This document shows, piece after piece, positions 16,091 through 62,757 of a stretch of 64,000 bases of DNA. Position 1 is the first letter of the stretch. The number at the start of each line of letters is the position of its first letter. The stretch comes from Sipunculus nudus (taxonomy: Eukaryota; Annelida; Sipuncula; Golfingiida; Sipunculidae). The notes below the pieces were generated by a model that saw only the letters and a list, made by a program, of their open reading frames with translations, was not told the origin of the DNA and did no database searches. The translations under genes were made by a program, and so were the position numbers. The DNA is taken from the NCBI GenBank assembly GCA_026874595.1, contig CM049315.1, positions 40,132,164 through 40,196,163 of the forward strand, written 5' to 3'.

Positions 16091-16404
16091 AAGAATCTTA
16101 GCTTATAGATGTTATGACCATTTGTACGGTCCATATAAAATAATGTCTTAAGTGGTAATGACCAGTAAATCCTGTAAATGCAAAAATAAGGAAATGCATT
16201 GATGATATTTGTATGATACTGATAAATGTTTGTATTGAATAAGATCTTATCAATCGTTTTTCATCAAGATTATTCGCCATGATGATTATAGGTATATCAT
16301 GACAAATACATCGAACGATATTTCAAATGTTATCGATATATCTGTGTTGTTACGGAGCGACATAAAAGCGGACAAAACTGTCTCGCTAGTGAAGTTTGCT
16401 TTTC

Positions 16405-16477
16405 TAGCAAAGCGGTTGGTACGCCGGACTTTTGCGCCACCGACATGGGTTCGAATCCGGAATCGGCCTAGTATTTT
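16405..16477 (+). promoter_or_regulatory. Internal Pol III promoter and terminator in TRIM 1 5' LTR
   Basis: The A box TAGCAAAGCGGT (consensus TRGCNNAGYNGG) and the B box GGTTCGAATCC are 43 nt apart start to start, as in tRNA genes. TTTT at 16474-16477 would end a transcript of roughly 85 nt if initiation is about 12 nt upstream of the A box. In other copies the T-arm folds with a CTGGG/CCCGG stem. Transcription is inferred, not shown. Confidence 0.7.
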
Positions 16478-16506
16478 CCCCTGAGCAATTTGTCTTTGTG
16501 ACAAAA

Positions 16507-16519
16507 TGGGGGCTCGTCC
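16507..16519 (+). promoter_or_regulatory. Primer-binding site for tRNA-Pro (TRIM 1)
   Basis: Thirteen bases match the tRNA-Pro PBS TGGGGGCTCGTCCGGGAT and begin 3 nt after the LTR end. In TRIM 2 the same place reads TTAGGCTTGTCCG, which has lost some of the G run but keeps the next base (G), so the family consensus may extend to 14 bases. Confidence 0.7.
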
Positions 16520-17399
16520 AACGTGACGGTAAACTTTGTGGCCCAGGAAAAAGCTCACCATGTGTGACTCCTGGGATAATTAGTCTTGTTCTGATAACAG
16601 AACGCTCTGAAGAGGGGATGTGTCATAAAAGCGGACCGAACTGTCTCGCTAGTAAAGCTTGCTTTTCTAGCGAAGCGGTTGGTATGCCGGACTTGTGCGC
16701 CACCGACATGGGTTCGAATCCGGGATCGGCCCAGTATTTTCCCCTGAAGGATTTGTCTTCGTAACAGTGTATATAATGCACTGAACCTAAACTAGCCGCT
16801 ACTTGGCCTGACTCTTCAAAATGATAGACCGAGTTAAATGTGATGTACTGATCGTCGTTAGGAGAGAAGAAGGAGCTATACTAAAATAAAACAAATACTA
16901 GTATTTTTTTAAACCATGACGTCCCTGGAAAAAAATAGTGTATATTAAAATAAAACTTTTACGTGAGTAGCAATACTGAGGAAATCATATAACTGTAGTG
17001 GAATTTGTTTAAAAGCGCCTCAGGCACATAAAACGGAACTTCTTGCTAATGAAATCTTCTAATTTTCTACATTTTTGTTTTTATAGTTATAGAAGCAATC
17101 GACAATGCTCATAATAGATAGTCAGGAAATATTGTAAAAACCTTACTGTGTGTAGTATTCCAACAATGGGATTCATAAAATATAGAAGCGGAGTCATATA
17201 TGAAACAGACAAGCAGACATTATTCGCTTTTGAAGAACATTGTAGGATACATTGTAGGCGCATACATCTTGATAGTATAAAAGTAACCTCTACGCTAAAA
17301 TGTTTTTGCGTATTGTTTGCATTATACAGTATATTTATTAATATTTTTAGCTATCCAGGTGTCTTCTCGATTTATTTCTCCAATAAAGTCTTCCAATAA

Positions 17400-20236: not shown

Positions 20237-21843
20237 GTAAGACCGCTCTGTGACACGTCACAACATGCGTACTGTCTTCTTAATCATGCTTATGTATATA
20301 TAATAGGTAGAGTTGGAGGTATTGCGTAATATTGTACACAATTCATCTTATATGTGAAGGATATTTTTGAATAATGCAGGATATATACTTTATGCATTAA
20401 ACCCTACAAACCATTGCACGGAGAGCGCGTTATAACCGAGTACTTAAATAATTTAATTACTGCTGTTGATAGTAAAGTATATGCACATGCAATGACAAGA
20501 ATAGCTACAATATGATTATTATAGTTAATGCAAGAGACAGCAGATGTACTATACCTACTTACCGATTATACCACTACCCAGGGACAAATAATTAAATTGT
20601 AATAATCAAGTATTTGCAGCAATGAGCAGTTTTCGATTCCTTGAAAAGTAAACATGCTCTGATTAGTACAGAACTTCCCGTAGACTTCACTTGTATAAAA
20701 TATTAGTTCGTTGAGGTGTTTTTCTCCGGATCAAGGCCAGACAAACGAATCTTTTCATGTTTTTGAATGTGAACATGCAGAAACTATAGCGTGCATAGTA
20801 CAGGCAAAAATATAGAAGAATTTAAGCATTTCTTCTGCAATCGAAGTAGGTCTCATTAGAGGTTACACCGTCCCTTCCTCGTAGTTTAGTCTTTATTTTT
20901 TTGTGAAGAATTCCTCAGCTCCATCTGAAAATATAAAACGTTCTGAAGTGTTTTCATTTAAGTTGTTTTTTTTTTGTTTTTTTTTGTCCTCCGGCGAAAC
21001 TTGCGGAAAAGCCCTTGCACCGGGTTCGCAGGAATAATAACGCTTCAATATGGAACGTAACAGTAAGTTTGTGAGCACATGCCCCACATCCTATCAAATG
21101 TCACATGTATAATATAATCTTTATATTTAAGCCAGCTATTCAGCTGTCTTATTTGTAAGATTTGTGTTATTTCTGGCTTACCTTGTGTGCTTATTAATTA
21201 TATGTATTTATTTCTGCTAAGAAAGGCTTCTAGTGGGAACAAGGGGATATTCTAAAGGGTGGTATGCGCTTGAGTATCGTCAATCTGTTTGTAAGCATGT
21301 TACACAAGTGCGGATGTTAAAAAATCACCGTTTGGAGGTGTTGCGAATATATAAAGATTTTTTTGCCATTTGTTAATCTCTGGTTGATCTGATATGCAAT
21401 TATGCCCTTGTCGGATGTGTTTTGGTAACGACTGGCTCAGATTTTGTATGAAAGTATACGAGTTTGCACAACAGTACTTCATAATTTTTTTTAAATATAT
21501 AAACAAGCTGGTGACAAATATAAAGAATGTTATGGTAGAAATTCGTAAATGAAACGTCCTGGCAGGTATTCATTAATAGCAGCACATTAATTCAAAAAAA
21601 TGTTTATCTGTGAATTTTAACATATTTTAACATTCTGTAGGACTGTTTTGGTTATATTTTTTGAGGACCTATCTACGTGTATTACAGTCAGGTATAGAAA
21701 TGGAGCTTGTATTAAAAAAATAGTTGTGTCAGAGGTTTGTCTTTAGGAAATGGATTTGACCCTCTCTCGTCACGTCATCCAATACATCAAGTCCTAAAGG
21801 TCCACGTTAAGTTTTATCTTATCTTATCTCTTCGTATTGAGAC
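20237..21843. other. Probable intron or intergenic sequence, nothing recognised
   Basis: The stretch is AT-rich with a T-rich tract at about 20960-20990 and short frames only. If the exon at 20216 is real, this would be the start of its first intron. Confidence 0.35.
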
Positions 21844-22001
21844 TGTTACGAAGACAAATTGCTCTAGGAAAATACTGGGCCGATTCAGGATTCGAACCCA
21901 TGTCGGTGGCGCACATGTCCGGCACATGTCCAACCGCTTCGCTAGAAAAACAAGCTTCAATACCGAGGCAGTTTGGTCCGCTTTTATGTCACCCCGTAAC
22001 A
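21844..22001 (-). mobile_element. Solo LTR of the TRIM family
   Basis: This 158-bp LTR on the - strand has perfect TGTTAC/GTAACA ends and a 4-bp target duplication AGAC (21840-21843 and 22002-22005). The A box lies at 21933-21944 and the B box at 21888-21898 (reverse complement). No internal region or second LTR is present, as expected after LTR-LTR recombination. Two small frames that overlap it are by-products. Confidence 0.88.
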
Positions 22002-22619
22002 AGACACAGTTGGACTTCCTGTATGTCTTTACAGGTTACATATACTTATAAATCTCCAGATGACTTGGTCTATTTCTTCCCCCGCACCCGCCCATGCACG
22101 GTGGGTTTTCCATTCATCGTCGAGTCAAAAACAAAACAGAAAGACCTTTCTCGGGTATACTTCAGCCCCAGCGCGGCTGTTTAAATAAAGAGAATTGCTA
22201 TTGACATGAACTGATCAGGAATAGAGCTATATAATCAAGCAGACTCCTGCTCACACAGAACGGCAATTAAACAAAGCGGCATGTAGCCCTGAATAATTTA
22301 TGCTACTCCCAAGACGGATGAGGGGTCGGTGGCTCTTAATTCAGTTTGTATCCAGGTAATACCGGTAGATTTTACACCAGTGACTGCCTGATGAAATTAA
22401 AAAGAGGCTGGGCTGGCTGGTCTGGCCTTCCAGTACCGTTGCCTTGTTATTATAAAACCAAATGATTAAAATGGCAGGTGATGTCACGTGATGGTATAAG
22501 GGATTATTGTAAAGTGTATGAAGCCCATGGTGTTATATTAGTATGAAGAATCTATTTCAAGTGTAAATATGAGGCTGTTAATTTATTTTAATATATTAAT
22601 TTTGGAGAGCATGTAGTCT

Positions 22620-22703: not shown

Positions 22704-23128
22704 TACATGTAGCTAAATATGTTGGAGCCTGTCTACCGATCGACCCGCCTGCAGATGGGCCTGGCCCATATAAGGATCCGATATTGTGCTGCCCACCTGC
22801 CGATGCTCTGCACTGCAAAGACAATGCCCGTCTGCAGATGGGCTTAGCCTAATAACTGATTTAATTCTTTTGTTAATACCATTTTAATCTTGTACTGCGG
22901 CCTGACGGTCATTCTTTTGAAATTCTAAGTTAGAGGTAGCCCGATACCCGAAAATGCTTTCAATCGGAAACATTTTACAGATTTCCATATGTACCCATGC
23001 CTTCAAACCTAAACAATTAGTATTAAAAAAATCAAATCAGCAAAAAAGAAAAAAATATTGTTCTATTTTTTTGTTTGATAGTAATGTATGAATTATTTAG
23101 ATACCTGTTTAATATTTCCTATATATGA

Positions 23129-23566
23129 TGTTACGAAGACAAATATTTGAGGGGAAAAATCTTGGGCCGATCCGGGAGTCGAACCAAGGTCGGTGGCGAA
23201 TAAGTCCGGCGAACCAACGTACCGCTTCGCTAGCAGAGCAAGCTTACCTAGCGAGACAGTTCGGTCCGCTTTTATGTCACCCCGTAACAAACCCCCTCTT
23301 AAGAGCGTTCTGCTATCAGAACAAGACTAATTTTCCCCGGGAGTCACACTTTGGTGAGCTCATTCTCTGGGCCACAAAGTTTAACCGTCACGTCGGACAA
23401 GCCTAATTTTGTTGCGAAGACAAATTTTTGAGGGGAAAAACACTGGGCCGATCCGGGAGTCGAACCCAGGTCGGTGGCGCAAAAGTCCCTTGAACCAACC
23501 GCTTCGCTAGCAAAGCAAGCATACCAAAGGAGACAGTTCGGTCCGCTTTTATGTCACCCCGTAACA
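23129..23566 (-). mobile_element. TRIM-like miniature LTR retrotransposon 2, full length (438 bp)
   Basis: On the - strand the 5' LTR is 23410-23566 (157 bp) and the 3' LTR 23129-23289 (161 bp), with a 120-bp interior. The outer ends are TGTTAC and GTAACA, and ATGA is duplicated on both sides (23125-23128, 23567-23570). The interior begins three bases after the LTR with a PBS-like TTAGGCTTGTCCG and ends with AAGAGGGGG, a polypurine tract, directly before the 3' LTR. Between them it closely matches the TRIM 1 interior (ACTTTGTGGCCCAG, GAGCTCACC, TTAGTCTTGTTCTGATA). Both LTRs keep the A box (23498-23509; 23221-23232) and the B box (23456-23466; 23175-23185). It has no coding capacity. Confidence 0.9.
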
Positions 23567-24159
23567 ATGATCAACAAACGGTCACAGTTTTAGTCGAGCA
23601 GTCCCTGCGCCCGGCGTGACTGCGATATATATAAATACTCCGTGTTAACCCTGTTCCTGAGCGCACTAAATATCACTAATTGAAAGTCAGATCCACGGAC
23701 TTTGTTGGTATGAAAATATGAATAATATTAGCGTGGCATAGCGCCTCCGTTTACATGGCTTGGCATAAGCAGCCGTTGATGACAGGAGTGGGCTTATCGC
23801 ATTGGGACAAGTGACACTCTGGGGTCACTTGTGTGTTCCGTTGCCGCAAGGAATGTCGCTCCAAGTGTGTGCCTAATTGTCCCCAGTGCCCTCACTGTGG
23901 TCAATATATTTAGAGAACATTAACTTCAGTACTTGTGGCTTTCTGCAGATGTGATCACATTAATTCAATCTTTGCCAGAGCCACTACAGTTGCGACCTGT
24001 TGACACCTCTGTCAACGGCGGCCTGCCTATATTTGAGGGAAATCTTGCATATATCATAAAAAGTCATTTTCTTCTTGACAGTGTTTCTTTCAGAACATTA
24101 ATTTTCCTTTTGAGTAGTGATGTGATGATTTTTGTTCTGATATCAGTCTGAAGCCGACC

Positions 24160-59412: not shown

Positions 59413-59696
59413 TGTTACGGGGTGACATAAAAGCGGACCGAACTGTCTCGCTAGTGCCAGGGAATAAGCTCACCAAAGTGTGACTCCTGGGATAATAAGT
59501 CTTGTTCTGATAGCAGAACGCACTTTAGGGGGGGGGGGGGGGTTACGGGGTGACATAAAAGCGGACCGAACTGTCTCGCTAGTGAAACTTGCTTTGCTAT
59601 CGAAGCGGTTGGTACGCCCGACTTGTGCGCCATCGACCTGGGTTCGACTCCCGGATCGGCCCAGGATTTTCCCCTCATTTATTTGTCTTTGTAACA
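59413..59696 (+). mobile_element. TRIM-like miniature LTR retrotransposon 3, internally deleted
   Basis: The 5' LTR starts TGTTACGGGGTGACATAAAA at 59413 but is cut after CTAGTG at about 59456, where the sequence jumps to the interior (GGGAATAAGCTCACC). The deletion removes the promoter half of the LTR and the primer-binding site. The polypurine tract has expanded to a G15 run (about 59528-59542), which replaces the first bases of the 3' LTR. That LTR (to 59696, ending GTAACA) keeps A box 59598-59609 and B box 59641-59651, and the T-arm stem CTGGG/CCCGG is intact. The flanks (AAAT, ATAA) do not match, perhaps because of the adjoining AT tract. A short TGTTACGG recurs at 59702. Confidence 0.82.
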
Positions 59697-59704
59697 ATAA
59701 TTGT

Positions 59705-59860
59705 TACGGAACCTAATAGAAACAGACTAGCAAATACCCGTGCTACGCAAGGTTTGGGACGAACGAAACAATCCGTACGTTGGTATCGGAAATCCACCGG
59801 AAATCGGGTGATACGGAAATCACACAAATCGCGATACGCTTTTAATATATAGATACATTA
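59705..59860 (+). repeat. Dispersed repeat, second copy near 61120-61240
   Basis: CAATCCGTACGTTGGTATCG, GTGATACGGAAAT and ACGCTTTTAATATA here correspond to CAATCCGTACGGTGGTATCA, GAGATACGGAAAA and ACGCTGTTAATATG at 61171-61232. The start CAAATACCCGTGCTACGCAAGG also recalls a family of dispersed retroelement ends, without proof. Confidence 0.55.
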
Positions 59861-60465
59861 TATGTAGGGTGATATGCATAAACATCGCATTGAAGCCAAA
59901 AGATTGGACGGAGATGTTTTCGGAGAAGTTGATATGATAATGAAATAATTTTTATATAAAAATATATTATGTTGAACATCGCTATTTAAAGTTGCCCTCC
60001 GAATTTTCTTGCGACAAAATCGCACTGTGTAAAAAATTGGTGACATATTCCAAGGTTTATTTGCATCCGATCATCGCATCCGTTCATCGCATTTGTGTAC
60101 AAATTTTGGACACTATATTTTCAATTACACATGACACATACCTCCATGCAAGCGTTTATCGCAGACCTTGAGTCCTGCTCGACTTTTGCGTTGAACGCAT
60201 CCGTTAAACGCACAGGGGATTCCACTTCATGACGTGAAATCGGGGAAGCCCACACTTCCATTACCAAAATATGAGTATTAAAGTTCATAGGGGAATAACT
60301 GTAGGGAAGCATTATGTCTGTAACACTCAACATGCATCTTACTATGTATGTATCACTGAAAGATTGCAACAATGAATTTGATGCAATAAAAGTGACATTT
60401 AAAGTGGAAGCAAAATAAAGCGTTAAGCACGGGCGCCAGGACAATTATTTTTGTGTGCATGTGTG

Positions 60466-60500
60466 TGTGTGTGGGGGGGGGGGGGGGGGGGGAGGGAGGG
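60466..60500 (+). repeat. (GT)n followed by poly-G (about 19 G)
   Basis: GTGTGTGTGTGTG grades into an uninterrupted G-run and GGAGGGAGGG. A second G-run (about 15) lies at 60818-60832. Confidence 0.9.
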
Positions 60501-61119
60501 TCCTATCCCACATTAATTTAATTAAAACATAATTATTTGTTATATTTTACTGAAATATCATTTAGGTTTACAGGCATAAATCTTGATTTGAAAGGACTAA
60601 ACTACCTATCGTCATCTGTTTGACGCTTGTGTGTCATGTGTTGCCTCATGGTTGCCGTCCTTTGATCGCACATGAAAGACGGGTGCGACAAACCAAATGC
60701 GATAAACACTGGTTTGTGTGACCATGGGACACGATTTTAGTCGCATGCGACTCGCTCATTTGTCAAACGCCCTGGACGCGGCACATGTGCATTCAAGCAT
60801 ATCAGGTCATGTACCGGGGGGGGGGGGGGGGGTCGCAGGTAGAAGCCCTCTTCGTGCGATATCCCGGTGACAGGAAGGCCTGCCAAACATTTCTTTCAAA
60901 GATTTCCCTTTTGAGAAGGGGATAATTTCGGGCCAGTGACCGCGAAATGTACAAATAACCCAGATAGGGCCCCCGAGTAAAACTCTGTTCGGCCATCACA
61001 CACTCTATGGCCATTGTCTTACGGGACCCGAAGACACAAAGAAAAGAGGCGCCCGCGGGGGAGCAAATATTAAAATTATTAATTATGCGCGTAATACGCA
61101 AATATTGCAAATAAAACTG

Positions 61120-61260
61120 GGTGGAATCTCTTCGAACACAACCGGAGCATATGTTTGTTGAAAATCACGGCAATCCGTACGGTGGTATCATAGGAGATAC
61201 GGAAAATTACAAAAATCGCCTTACGCTGTTAATATGCGTATACGTGATGAACACAAATTT
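61120..61260 (+). repeat. Dispersed repeat, second copy of 59705-59860
   Basis: It shares the CAATCCGTACG, GATACGGAAA and ACGC/TTAATAT blocks in the same order with the copy 1.4 kb upstream. A GC-rich stretch (60840-61060) precedes it. Confidence 0.5.
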
Positions 61261-61534
61261 TGTAATGGAGATTTTAAAAATCAGATTATGCAACACTAGG
61301 CAGCGTGAAATGTCTAGGGGAATGAATAAAGAAATAAGTGGTTTCTTGATAACACATACCTATAATTTATTCTTAAAACAACCCTAACAATTCAATACAC
61401 TAAATCAATACATTTATACAGTATAACAGCGGTATAGCAACAAGTCAATACAATCACACAGAAAGTAATGTGCACAGTACCTGGCTACCAACACCGTCAT
61501 AACGATAAGTTCTTTAAAATTAAAAAAGTTAGAA

Positions 61535-62530
61535 ATGCAACATGAGCTAGCATTAAAAGAGAAAGAAAAAGCAATTGAGTTAAAACGACTGGAGTTAGAA
61601 AGACTTAAACTAGAACATAGTCTACGTGCTGCCCCAACTCACAGTTTTGATGTTACTAAACACATTAGACTTGTCCCACCTTTTCAAGAAAGAGAGGTTG
61701 ATAAATATTTCTTACACTTTGAGAAAGTAGCTGAAAAATTTAAAATAGCCTAAGGAAAATTGGACTTTGCTGTGACAAAGTGTATTCACTGGCAAGGACA
61801 GAGAAATTTATACAGAGCTTTCAGTAGAAGCTGCTGCTGACTATGGCCTGCTGAAACGGTTAATCCTTAAAGGTTATGAGTTAGTTCCGGAGGCTTACCG
61901 CCAGAAATTCAGAAATTGGGAAAAGCGCAAAGAACAGACCTACGTCGAATTTGCTAGGACGAAAGAGCAGTTGTTTGATCGCTGGTGTAACTCTAAAAAT
62001 GTAATGAAAGATTATGACAATTTGCGCCAGTCGATTTTGCTTGAAGAATTTAAGCGCTGCATTAACGCAGATGTTAAAACTTTTCTCGATGAGAAAAGTC
62101 CTGAAACACTTGACATTGCTGCTCAATTGGCTGATGATTATTCATTAACACACAAAATGTCCTTTACTAGCAAATCAAACTAGTCATTCACAAACAAGAA
62201 AGTAAATCAGTATGGTCAAAAGAAGTTTAAAGCGCAGTCACCCAGTACTAGTAGTCCTGATAGTTCATCAAAGTCAATTGCTAAACCTCAGTCCACGTCC
62301 ACTGTGTCTAAGTCCAACAAAGACCAGTCATTTTCAAAGAAAATCTGTCATTACTGCAAGAAAAAAAGGTCATCTAATATCTGACTGCTGGAAACTTGCG
62401 AATAAATCAAATAGCAAACTTTCTGGGTTTGTTTCAAAATCTATGCATGGCAAAGTACAAGAGCTATTTATAACTTCTCACCCGAAGCCGAAAATTTTCC
62501 ACTTCTCGAACAGTACAAAGGATATAACAT
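61535..62530 (+). pseudogene. gag: Ty3/gypsy-type retrotransposon gag relic (SCAN-like capsid, CCHC knuckle)
   Basis: The first part (61535-61741) encodes an alpha-helical Glu/Lys/Leu-rich segment (for example ELKRLELERLKLEH) followed by LVPPFQEREVDKYFLHFEKV. An inserted base near 61743 and a nonsense codon (TAG) shift it. The frame then continues from 61749 with a TGA at 61773, through a capsid segment with YELVPEAYRQKFR, YVEFARTKEQLFDRW and ILLEEFK. This combination is known from the capsid of gypsy elements related to the vertebrate SCAN domain. A TAG lies at 62181-62183. Still in the same frame, a Ser/Lys-rich linker leads to a nucleocapsid CCHC zinc knuckle (C-X2-C-X4-H-X4-C, 62346-62388), with an extra A in an A-run before its His. 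No pol, protease or flanking LTR pair follows, so it is a dead fragment. Confidence 0.85.
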
Positions 62531-62539
62531 AATACACAG

Positions 62540-62751
62540 TAAACACGCGTTACAGGAATCATCTAGGAGAACATCGCTGTGTCTCTACATATCAGGGTCT
62601 ACACGTGATCTCGGCCAGGCGAGAAAGCCCCAAGCTAGCATGACAACGAGAGTTCAACCAGTACGGATTAAACATAGAATGCAATACGCGGCCAGACACC
62701 GGCGCTACAACACGAGTTACGCCCGTGCCACACAATAAAAAGGGCACCTGT

Positions 62752-62757
<6 letters not shown>
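62540..62757 (-). mobile_element. Possible LTR remnant (TGTTACAGGTGCCC start)
   Basis: Read on the - strand from 62757, the sequence starts TGTTACAGGTGCCCTTTTTA, typical of LTR starts, and continues for about 210 bp without coding potential. The other end is not defined. It could be unrelated to the gag relic beside it, because the orientation is opposite. Confidence 0.25.

What the first reader, a model, noticed from the sequence alone, without database searches (positions are those of the whole stretch)
16348..16766. Miniature LTR retrotransposon family with a tRNA-type Pol III promoter inside the LTR
Four loci (16348-16766, 21844-22001, 23129-23566, 59413-59696) share about 157-bp LTRs (TGTTAC...GTAACA) containing a well matched A box, a B box GGTTCGANTCC at tRNA spacing and a TTTT stretch. 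The interior is about 115-120 bp with only a primer-binding site and a polypurine tract. TRIMs are established, and plant Cassandra TRIMs carry 5S rRNA Pol III promoters in their LTRs. A tRNA-like version in an animal would be a parallel invention, or a SINE captured as an LTR. A family-level search result for novelty is not available to me.
Basis: partly seen in the sequence, partly recalled or inferred. Interest (0 to 1): 0.88.

Follow-up and report, generated by a model that had tools for sequence, protein, structure and literature searches.

The report
Tiny LTR element with tRNA-like promoter
These repeats are tiny passenger retrotransposons that carry a tRNA-like promoter in their end repeats, a kind first named in 2024, and broken copies elsewhere in this animal genome point to the larger element that probably carries them.

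Summary
The window holds copies of a ~430-bp TRIM: ~157-bp LTRs (TGTTAC...GTAACA) with an A box, a B box at tRNA spacing and a TTTT, around a ~116-bp interior with a tRNA-Pro primer-binding site (PBS) and a polypurine tract. The genome has 1,831 exact A+B-box pairs and 1,012 exact LTR-end/PBS junctions (controls 0), the latter including Gypsy copies. Sampled copies carry 4-bp target duplications (19 of 28 outside AT tracts; shuffled mean 1.35). The kind is published as Helenus/TRIMp3 (Kojima 2024), so this is a new member. Pol III transcription is untested.

Newer are fossil reverse-transcription products. At 23 exact sites an 18-nt PBS (the usual strong-stop length) or longer tRNA-Pro copy is joined to other sequence; 20 run into an inverted TRIM LTR at its tRNA-like T-stem. 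Six of 15 TRIM-TRIM loci show 4-bp duplications by script. Five loci join the TRIM to one Gypsy family (Gypsy1) with the same PBS; one, Gypsy1 LTR-PBS-inverted TRIM LTR, is flanked by GTAT on both sides, consistent with integration as a unit. Gypsy1 is the likely carrier.

The parts
16344..16347 (.). left 4-bp target-site duplication GTGT of copy 1
   Evidence: scripted for the same copy (L001)
16348..16503 (+). 5' LTR of copy 1
16405..16415 (+). A box TAGCAAAGCGG in the 5' LTR
16448..16458 (+). B box GGTTCGAATCC in the 5' LTR
16474..16477 (+). TTTT, candidate Pol III terminator 16 nt after the B-box motif
16507..16519 (+). PBS TGGGGGCTCGTCC, complementary to the 3' end of host tRNA-Pro plus CCA, after an AAA spacer
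16610..16617 (+). polypurine tract AAGAGGGG before the 3' LTR
   Evidence: family data
16620..16766 (+). 3' LTR of copy 1 (first ~10 bp damaged)
16767..16770 (.). right 4-bp target-site duplication GTGT
21844..22001 (-). solo LTR, flanked by 4-bp duplication AGAC (21840-21843, 22002-22005)
23129..23566 (-). copy 3: 3' LTR 23129-23289, interior 23290-23409 (PBS decayed), 5' LTR 23410-23566; duplication ATGA at 23125-23128 and 23567-23570
59413..59696 (+). copy 4: 5' LTR stub 59413-59456, partial interior to ~59540 without PBS, 3' LTR 59541-59696; in an AT tract, no clean duplication
59702..59726 (-). 25-bp end of a Gypsy1 LTR (96% identity), 5 bp from TRIM copy 4
61239..62755 (-). further Gypsy1 LTR pieces (61239-61518 and 62467-62755) of the candidate carrier; a Gypsy1 gag piece lies between them at 61514-62225 on the + strand

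Best explanation
It is a Helenus-type TRIM (a TRIMp3): a non-coding ~430-bp LTR retrotransposon whose LTR carries a tRNA-like type-2 Pol III promoter. Inferred transcription: Pol III starts 10-20 nt before the A box, reads through the weak TTTT in the 5' LTR in some transcripts and stops at the TTTT in the 3' LTR, giving an RNA with R at both ends. Supported by sequence: tRNA-Pro primes reverse transcription at TGGGGGCTCGTCC, the polypurine tract primes the plus strand, and integration makes 4-bp duplications. The likely source of enzymes is Gypsy1, a Gypsy-type element (SCAN-type gag, RT) with the same PBS, a similar polypurine tract and the same LTR tips, whose LTR-PBS18 (the form of plus-strand strong-stop DNA) is found physically joined to the TRIM LTR. 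Inferred: the LTR's T-stem ATCCSGGAT resembles the 3' end of strong-stop DNA (TCCGGGAT-3', after 18 nt of tRNA-Pro), so that end can mis-anneal there on either strand, yielding palindromic strong-stop dimers that can be integrated.
For: TRIM: 4-bp duplications in 26 of 43 anchored elements, 19 of 28 outside AT tracts (1,000 shuffles: mean 1.35, max 7); 3-, 5- and 6-bp matches 0 of 28. Exact PBS in 22 of 35 interiors (many loci were fetched by their PBS, so biased), GGGG-purine run at the 3' end in 31 of 35. PBS matches host tRNA-Pro genes. Promoter: strict A+B in 56 of 97 LTRs, gap 32 nt in 52 of the 56; T4-5 sixteen nt after the B-box motif in 59 of 77 with strict B; AATAAA in 1 of 97. Carrier: Gypsy1 LTR TGTTACAGG...CCGTAACA, PBS18, tract AGGAGGGGGAG, SCAN gag, RVT_1 RT. 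Loci joining TRIM and Gypsy1: L090, L095, L100, L102, L105; L102 has GTAT on both sides.
Against: No RNA data. No tRNA covariance or ARAGORN match. Promoter columns are only weakly better conserved than the rest (0 of 22 variable against 24 of 156 overall, P=0.019; rank test P=0.065). A second Gypsy family with the same PBS exists; its polypurine tract and LTR start were not seen. Beyond the tips Gypsy1 and TRIM LTRs are not alike. Only 6 of 15 TRIM-TRIM dimer loci gave a 4-bp duplication by script. Of the five Gypsy1-TRIM loci only L102 has a duplication shown, and ~540 bp in the middle of its Gypsy1 LTR were not fetched; for L100 the LTR start was not found where expected. Three of 22 ordinary interiors already have GGGAT after the 13-nt PBS, so 18 nt need not always come from the tRNA itself.
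Confidence: 0.8

Rival explanations
1. A tRNA-derived SINE family whose monomers became tandem or paired by recombination; the LTR look is incidental.
For: Tandem forms occur, e.g. one 766-bp multi-LTR unit (L035) with one 4-bp duplication, and the LTR has tRNA-like boxes.
Against: 4-bp duplications around LTR-interior-LTR and around solo LTRs, fixed TGTTAC/GTAACA tips, tRNA-Pro PBS and polypurine tract; strong-stop-type junctions after 18 nt of primer.
Confidence: 0.03
2. A TRIM transcribed by Pol II; the tRNA-like segment is a passive relic and ACATAAAAG at LTR position ~13 is the TATA box.
For: ATAAAAG is among the best conserved stretches of the LTR (positions 15-21 at 0.96-1.00 majority); promoter-column conservation is weak by rank test (P=0.065); no transcript data.
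Against: AATAAA in only 1 of 97 LTRs and ATTAAA in 2; B-box specified positions conserved while its two free positions vary (0.93-0.98 against 0.81-0.84); A-B gap fixed in 52 of 56.
Confidence: 0.15
3. The chimeras are DNA-level rearrangements (recombination or microhomology repair between PBS and LTR T-stem) and say nothing about a shared particle.
For: PBS18 and LTR share 7-8 nt (TCCGGGAT / ATCCCGG); the sense-orientation forms (L045, L106) could be deletions between short direct repeats; most chimeric loci have no shown duplication.
Against: Palindromic forms end at LTR tips on both sides with a 4-bp duplication in six loci by script, and so does the Gypsy1-TRIM locus L102; L086 and L099 carry 38-39 nt of tRNA-Pro antisense and L095 a longer stretch, more than the PBS holds.
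Confidence: 0.15
4. The carrier is another tRNA-Pro Gypsy; Gypsy1 chimeras only reflect its abundance.
For: A second family (spacer GATTTCT) shares PBS and GTAACA tip and was not compared in full; Gypsy1 is abundant (108 exact junctions, three of them in chimeras).
Against: Gypsy1 shares both LTR tips and a similar polypurine tract with the TRIM; five loci join TRIM and Gypsy1, none of the 27 sites read joins the TRIM to the second family.
Confidence: 0.2

Closest known systems
Helenus (TRIMp3), Kojima 2024, PMC10886601
   Same: TRIM with tRNA-derived A and B boxes in the LTR, PBS for a tRNA 3' end (tRNA-Pro among those used in bivalves), polypurine tract, 4-bp duplications in animals, solo LTRs, tandem arrays in one family, mostly not a functional tRNA.
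   Different: Sequence relation to a named Helenus family not testable here (Repbase not held). The paper infers Gypsy carriers for animal families from PBS similarity and reports no complementarity between the LTR tRNA-like part and the PBS; here the LTR T-stem shares 7-8 nt with the end of the 18-nt PBS copy, and physical chimeras point to one Gypsy family.
Cassandra (plants) and Ajax (nemerteans)
   Same: Pol III promoter in a TRIM LTR; same transcription logic proposed.
   Different: Those carry 5S rRNA promoters; no 5S match (8 loci; copy 1).
biv-TRIM of bivalves, PMC6934838
   Same: Animal TRIM, tandem arrays and solo repeats.
   Different: Reported 202-218-bp repeats, 77-80-bp interior, no clear PBS; here ~157 bp, ~116-120 bp and a tRNA-Pro PBS.
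tRNA-derived SINEs
   Same: A/B-box promoter.
   Different: LTRs, PBS, polypurine tract and fixed 4-bp duplications instead of a LINE-type tail.

Membership tests
Helenus / TRIMp3 | short TRIM (311-1263 bp in the paper) with two LTRs and no coding region | tested here: met
   LTR-interior-LTR copies of about 400-440 bp; interior ~115-120 bp
Helenus / TRIMp3 | tRNA-derived A and B boxes at tRNA spacing inside the LTR | tested here: met
   56 of 97 LTRs strict, 0 of 9,700 shuffled; 1,831 genome hits, control 0
Helenus / TRIMp3 | PBS matching a cellular tRNA | tested here: met
   13 nt equal to the antisense of host tRNA-Pro plus CCA
Helenus / TRIMp3 | polypurine tract before the 3' LTR | tested here: met
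   31 of 35 interiors
Helenus / TRIMp3 | 4-bp target duplications in animals | tested here: met
   19 of 28 outside AT tracts, shuffled mean 1.35
Helenus / TRIMp3 | tRNA-like part usually not a functional tRNA (the paper excepts some bivalve and fungal families) | tested here: met
   no tRNA covariance match, no ARAGORN gene in the window
Helenus / TRIMp3 | sequence homology to a named Helenus family | not testable with these tools
   Repbase not held
Helenus / TRIMp3 | Pol III transcript | not testable with these tools
   no RNA data; PMC10886601 says it is not validated for Helenus either
Cassandra / Ajax | 5S rRNA-derived promoter in the LTR | tested here: not met
   no 5S match
biv-TRIM | 202-218-bp terminal repeats, 77-80-bp interior, no clear PBS | tested here: not met
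   LTR ~156-158 bp, interior ~115-120 bp, PBS present (for the published figures)
tRNA-derived SINE | no LTRs; LINE-type tail and variable duplications | tested here: not met

The most novel reading that the evidence does not exclude
The tRNA-like segment of this LTR was captured from its own primer, tRNA-Pro, by reverse transcription that read past A58 into the tRNA body, rather than from a SINE that jumped into an LTR. The same likeness now makes strong-stop DNA of TRIM and Gypsy1 land in the LTR, so the genome keeps dimers, Gypsy1-TRIM hybrids and read-through products that record where reverse transcriptase stopped on the primer.
Probability: 0.12. Interest if true: 0.8.

Novelty: new member of a known kind. 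Interest (0 to 1): 0.58.

Why it matters
The element adds a well-populated member to the recently named Helenus class. The added value is the set of fossil chimeras. Which autonomous element moves an animal Helenus has rested on primer-site similarity (PMC10886601); a duplication-flanked hybrid of Gypsy1 LTR-PBS and TRIM LTR suggests that both were copied together and integrated as one molecule. The junctions also look like an in-genome record of where reverse transcriptase stops on a tRNA-Pro primer (after 18 nt, and just before position 37), matching stops reported for HIV-1 on its primer (PMC13191261, passages). Such junctions can be counted in any genome that has Helenus.

Tried and rejected
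Tandem SINE monomers: rejected on duplications, PBS, polypurine tract and solo LTRs. Functional tRNA: no covariance or ARAGORN support. Cassandra-like 5S promoter: no match. biv-TRIM: dimensions differ. Shared LTR sequence between TRIM and Gypsy1: only the tips match.

Host identity: a haemocyanin-domain search found nothing, but its control was silent, so it shows little. A muscle myosin exon matched 3i5f (squid, recalled) and then scallop chains (recalled) best, at bit scores hardly above vertebrate ones (193 against 190). An animal, possibly a mollusc; not settled, so I make no claim of a range extension.

Primer capture: 97 LTRs scored against 13 tRNAs; host tRNA-Pro was best (median z 3.15; best for 52 of 97), then recalled human Val (2.31), recalled human Thr (1.98) and host Lys (1.96). 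For single LTRs it is unsteady: one of three window LTRs reached z 4.3, another 2.1, where host Lys did as well.

The rank test for promoter columns did not reach 0.05. The AT-tract preference is strong in the whole sample but 2 of 10 in the pattern-sampled subset.

Full report
What is there. Reading the coordinates and aligning them confirms a repeat with ~157-bp LTRs that begin TGTTAC and end GTAACA. Copy 1 (16348-16766) is LTR-interior-LTR with the PBS TGGGGGCTCGTCC after an AAA spacer, a polypurine tract AAGAGGGG and the duplication GTGT. The 21844 copy is a solo LTR (AGAC). The 23129 copy is complete but with a decayed PBS (ATGA). The 59413 copy has lost most of the 5' LTR and the PBS and shows no clean duplication.

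How many. In the 1.43-Gb genome the 419-bp copy gives 55 scored matches, a lower bound because only 40 of 3,966 candidates were scored. Exact A+B-box pairs number 1,831 and exact LTR-end/PBS junctions 1,012, each with 0 for the reversed pattern. The junction count is not TRIM alone: of the 30 junction loci held, 26 were TRIM and 4 a Gypsy-type element.

Is it an LTR element. A script found 66 clusters in the loci held and the window, after dropping 9 repeats and 1 edge case (the 11 clusters that do not end in LTRs were not checked for repeats). Of the 66, 43 had both tips anchored and 12 a damaged tip. Of the 43, 26 had a 4-bp duplication; outside AT tracts 19 of 28 against a shuffled mean of 1.35 (maximum 7 in 1,000), with 0 of 28 for 3, 5 or 6 bp. 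Solo LTRs and tandem forms also carry duplications. The sample is mostly best matches, so it is not a random draw. Of the sites, 18 of 43 lie in or beside AT repeats against 4.6% of random points in the same loci, but only 2 of 10 among copies taken by junction pattern. LTR pairs within 30 elements differ by a median 8.1% (3.2-21.9%), so the sampled copies are not recent.

Promoter. In 97 LTRs the A box (position 58) and B box (101) stand at tRNA spacing; 56 have both in strict form, 52 of them with the same 32-nt gap; 59 of the 77 with a strict B box have T4-5 sixteen nt beyond the motif. In the B box the specified letters are 0.93-0.98 majority while the two free letters are 0.84 and 0.81. 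The formal test is modest: 0 of 22 specified columns are variable against 24 of 156 overall (P=0.019), but a rank test gives 0.065. There is no cloverleaf: no tRNA model match and no ARAGORN gene in the window. AATAAA occurs in 1 of 97 LTRs. Transcription by Pol III is therefore likely but inferred.

What it is called. Kojima 2024 (PMC10886601; abstract, the first of six parts of the text, Results, Discussion and tables read) describes this kind as Helenus, with 4-bp duplications in animals, tRNA-Pro among bivalve primers, Gypsy as the likely carrier of animal families from PBS similarity, and tandem arrays in one family. Satovic 2019 (PMC6934838; abstract, first part of Results and Discussion read) describes a different bivalve TRIM. 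The defining features of Helenus that could be tested are met; sequence homology to a named family and a Pol III transcript could not be tested.

The likely carrier. Four of the 30 junction loci (L039, L043, L059, L067) carry a Gypsy-type element, here Gypsy1: LTR of 808 bp in L067, TGTTACAGG...GTTCCGTAACA, spacer TAAAAT, PBS TGGGGGCTCGTCCGGGAT. One copy's gag ORF matches the SCAN domain. In another (L067 and, ~5.4 kb on, L069) the polypurine tract is AGGAGGGGGAG and an RT lies downstream of a weak, below-cut-off integrase C-terminal match. That gene order and a SCAN-type gag recall Gmr1-like Gypsy elements (recalled, not tested). Its LTR is unlike the TRIM LTR beyond the tips. Pieces of it lie in the window, one 5 bp from TRIM copy 4. 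Exact Gypsy1 junctions number 108, three of them in the chimeras below. A second Gypsy-type family shares the PBS; its LTR start and polypurine tract were not seen.

Fossil reverse-transcription products. Checking the PBS against host tRNA-Pro showed that some LTR-PBS junctions run on into tRNA-Pro antisense or into an inverted LTR. The pattern TGGGGGCTCGTCCGGGATTNGAACC has 23 genome hits, control 0, and all 23 were read. Seventeen (15 loci after merging two apparent duplicate pairs) are TRIM LTR-PBS-inverted TRIM LTR, the inverted part running from the B box towards LTR position 1, in some only for a short piece. By script 6 of the 15 have a 4-bp duplication at LTR tips (TGGC, CCTT, ACAG, AGGA, ATAT, AACA); L084 (CTGT) is a seventh by eye; L096 matches at 3 of 4 letters; two lie in AT tracts; the other five are damaged or not fully in view. 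Three hits (L090, L100, L102) are Gypsy1 LTR-PBS-inverted TRIM LTR. L102 is the clearest: a Gypsy1 LTR begins right after GTAT (L108) and the inverted TRIM LTR ends right before GTAT; the first 63 and last ~200 bp of that LTR were read, ~540 bp between were not fetched. For L100 the LTR start was not found where expected (L109). The last three hits are read-through: L086 with 38 nt and L099 (a Gypsy1 LTR) with 39 nt of tRNA-Pro antisense, and L095, where a TRIM LTR runs through about 60 nt of it (4 mismatches, ungapped) into a Gypsy1 LTR tail and interior. L086 showed no duplication. A sense-strand pattern has 4 hits in three loci: L045 and L106 (TRIM) and L105, a nearly complete Gypsy1 LTR-PBS18-TRIM LTR tail. 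So five loci join Gypsy1 and TRIM: L090, L095, L100, L102, L105. None of the 27 sites joins the TRIM to the second Gypsy family.

Mechanism. A review (PMC13191261; passages only) states that plus-strand strong-stop DNA normally ends after 18 nt of the primer because of m1A58, and that HIV-1 shows minor stops further in, including position 37. In 22 ordinary TRIM interiors with an exact PBS the next letters are most often AACGTGAC (8), and GGGATGAC in 3, whereas in the chimeras they continue as 18 nt of tRNA-Pro. In 17 of the 23 hits the 20th letter is C, as in the LTR B box, not T as in tRNA-Pro. The 39 nt of L099 end at tRNA position 38, just before G37 (my numbering on the gene). The end TCCGGGAT-3' can pair with the LTR T-stem ATCCSGGAT on either strand, which would give both the inverted and the sense products. 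Extension of one strong-stop DNA on another to its 5' end would give the observed palindromes with LTR tips at both ends, which integrase could use. These steps are inference from junctions; no enzyme was tested, and the three interiors with GGGAT show that 18 nt need not always come from the tRNA. That Gypsy1 and TRIM were copied in the same place follows if L102 arose as one molecule, for which its duplication is the evidence.

Not in print? Searches listed no paper that I recognised as describing strong-stop dimers or carrier-TRIM hybrids of this sort; I saw listings, not the texts. The library is open-access only, so this is weak evidence of novelty.

Origin. Kojima proposes SINE insertion. 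Here the primer, tRNA-Pro, is the best match to the LTR among 13 tRNAs tried, and read-through products show a route by which the primer body enters element DNA. The test is incomplete and the scores are modest and uneven between copies; I keep this as the most novel reading.

Noticed in passing
window 59702-62755: Broken Gypsy1 LTR on the minus strand with a Gypsy1 gag piece in the opposite orientation between its parts, and TRIM copy 4 only 5 bp from its end.
   Followed up: partly
L074 (2,001 bases), PBS at ~786: A second Gypsy-type family with the same tRNA-Pro PBS, spacer GATTTCT and a long open frame after the PBS that was not scanned.
   Followed up: partly
G000 C9:40605435-40699894: Tandem array of dozens of high-scoring tRNA genes at about 1.67-kb spacing.
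   Followed up: no
G000 C14:19081323-19319682; L110: tRNA-Pro matches repeated, many at ~3.65-kb spacing; the one read is tRNA-Pro(TGG).
   Followed up: partly
G000 C115; L075-L076: Interleaved tRNA-Lys and tRNA-Asn genes packed within about 1 kb.
   Followed up: no
L043, 1-935: A ~80-bp minisatellite, about 91% alike between shifted copies, upstream of a Gypsy1 copy.
   Followed up: no
L048/L049: A strong-stop dimer duplicated within a locally repetitive region, 99% identical over 1.9 kb.
   Followed up: partly
TRIM insertion sites in the sampled loci: TRIM copies are frequent in AT dinucleotide repeats (18 of 43 against 4.6% of random points); only 2 of 10 in the pattern-sampled subset.
   Followed up: partly
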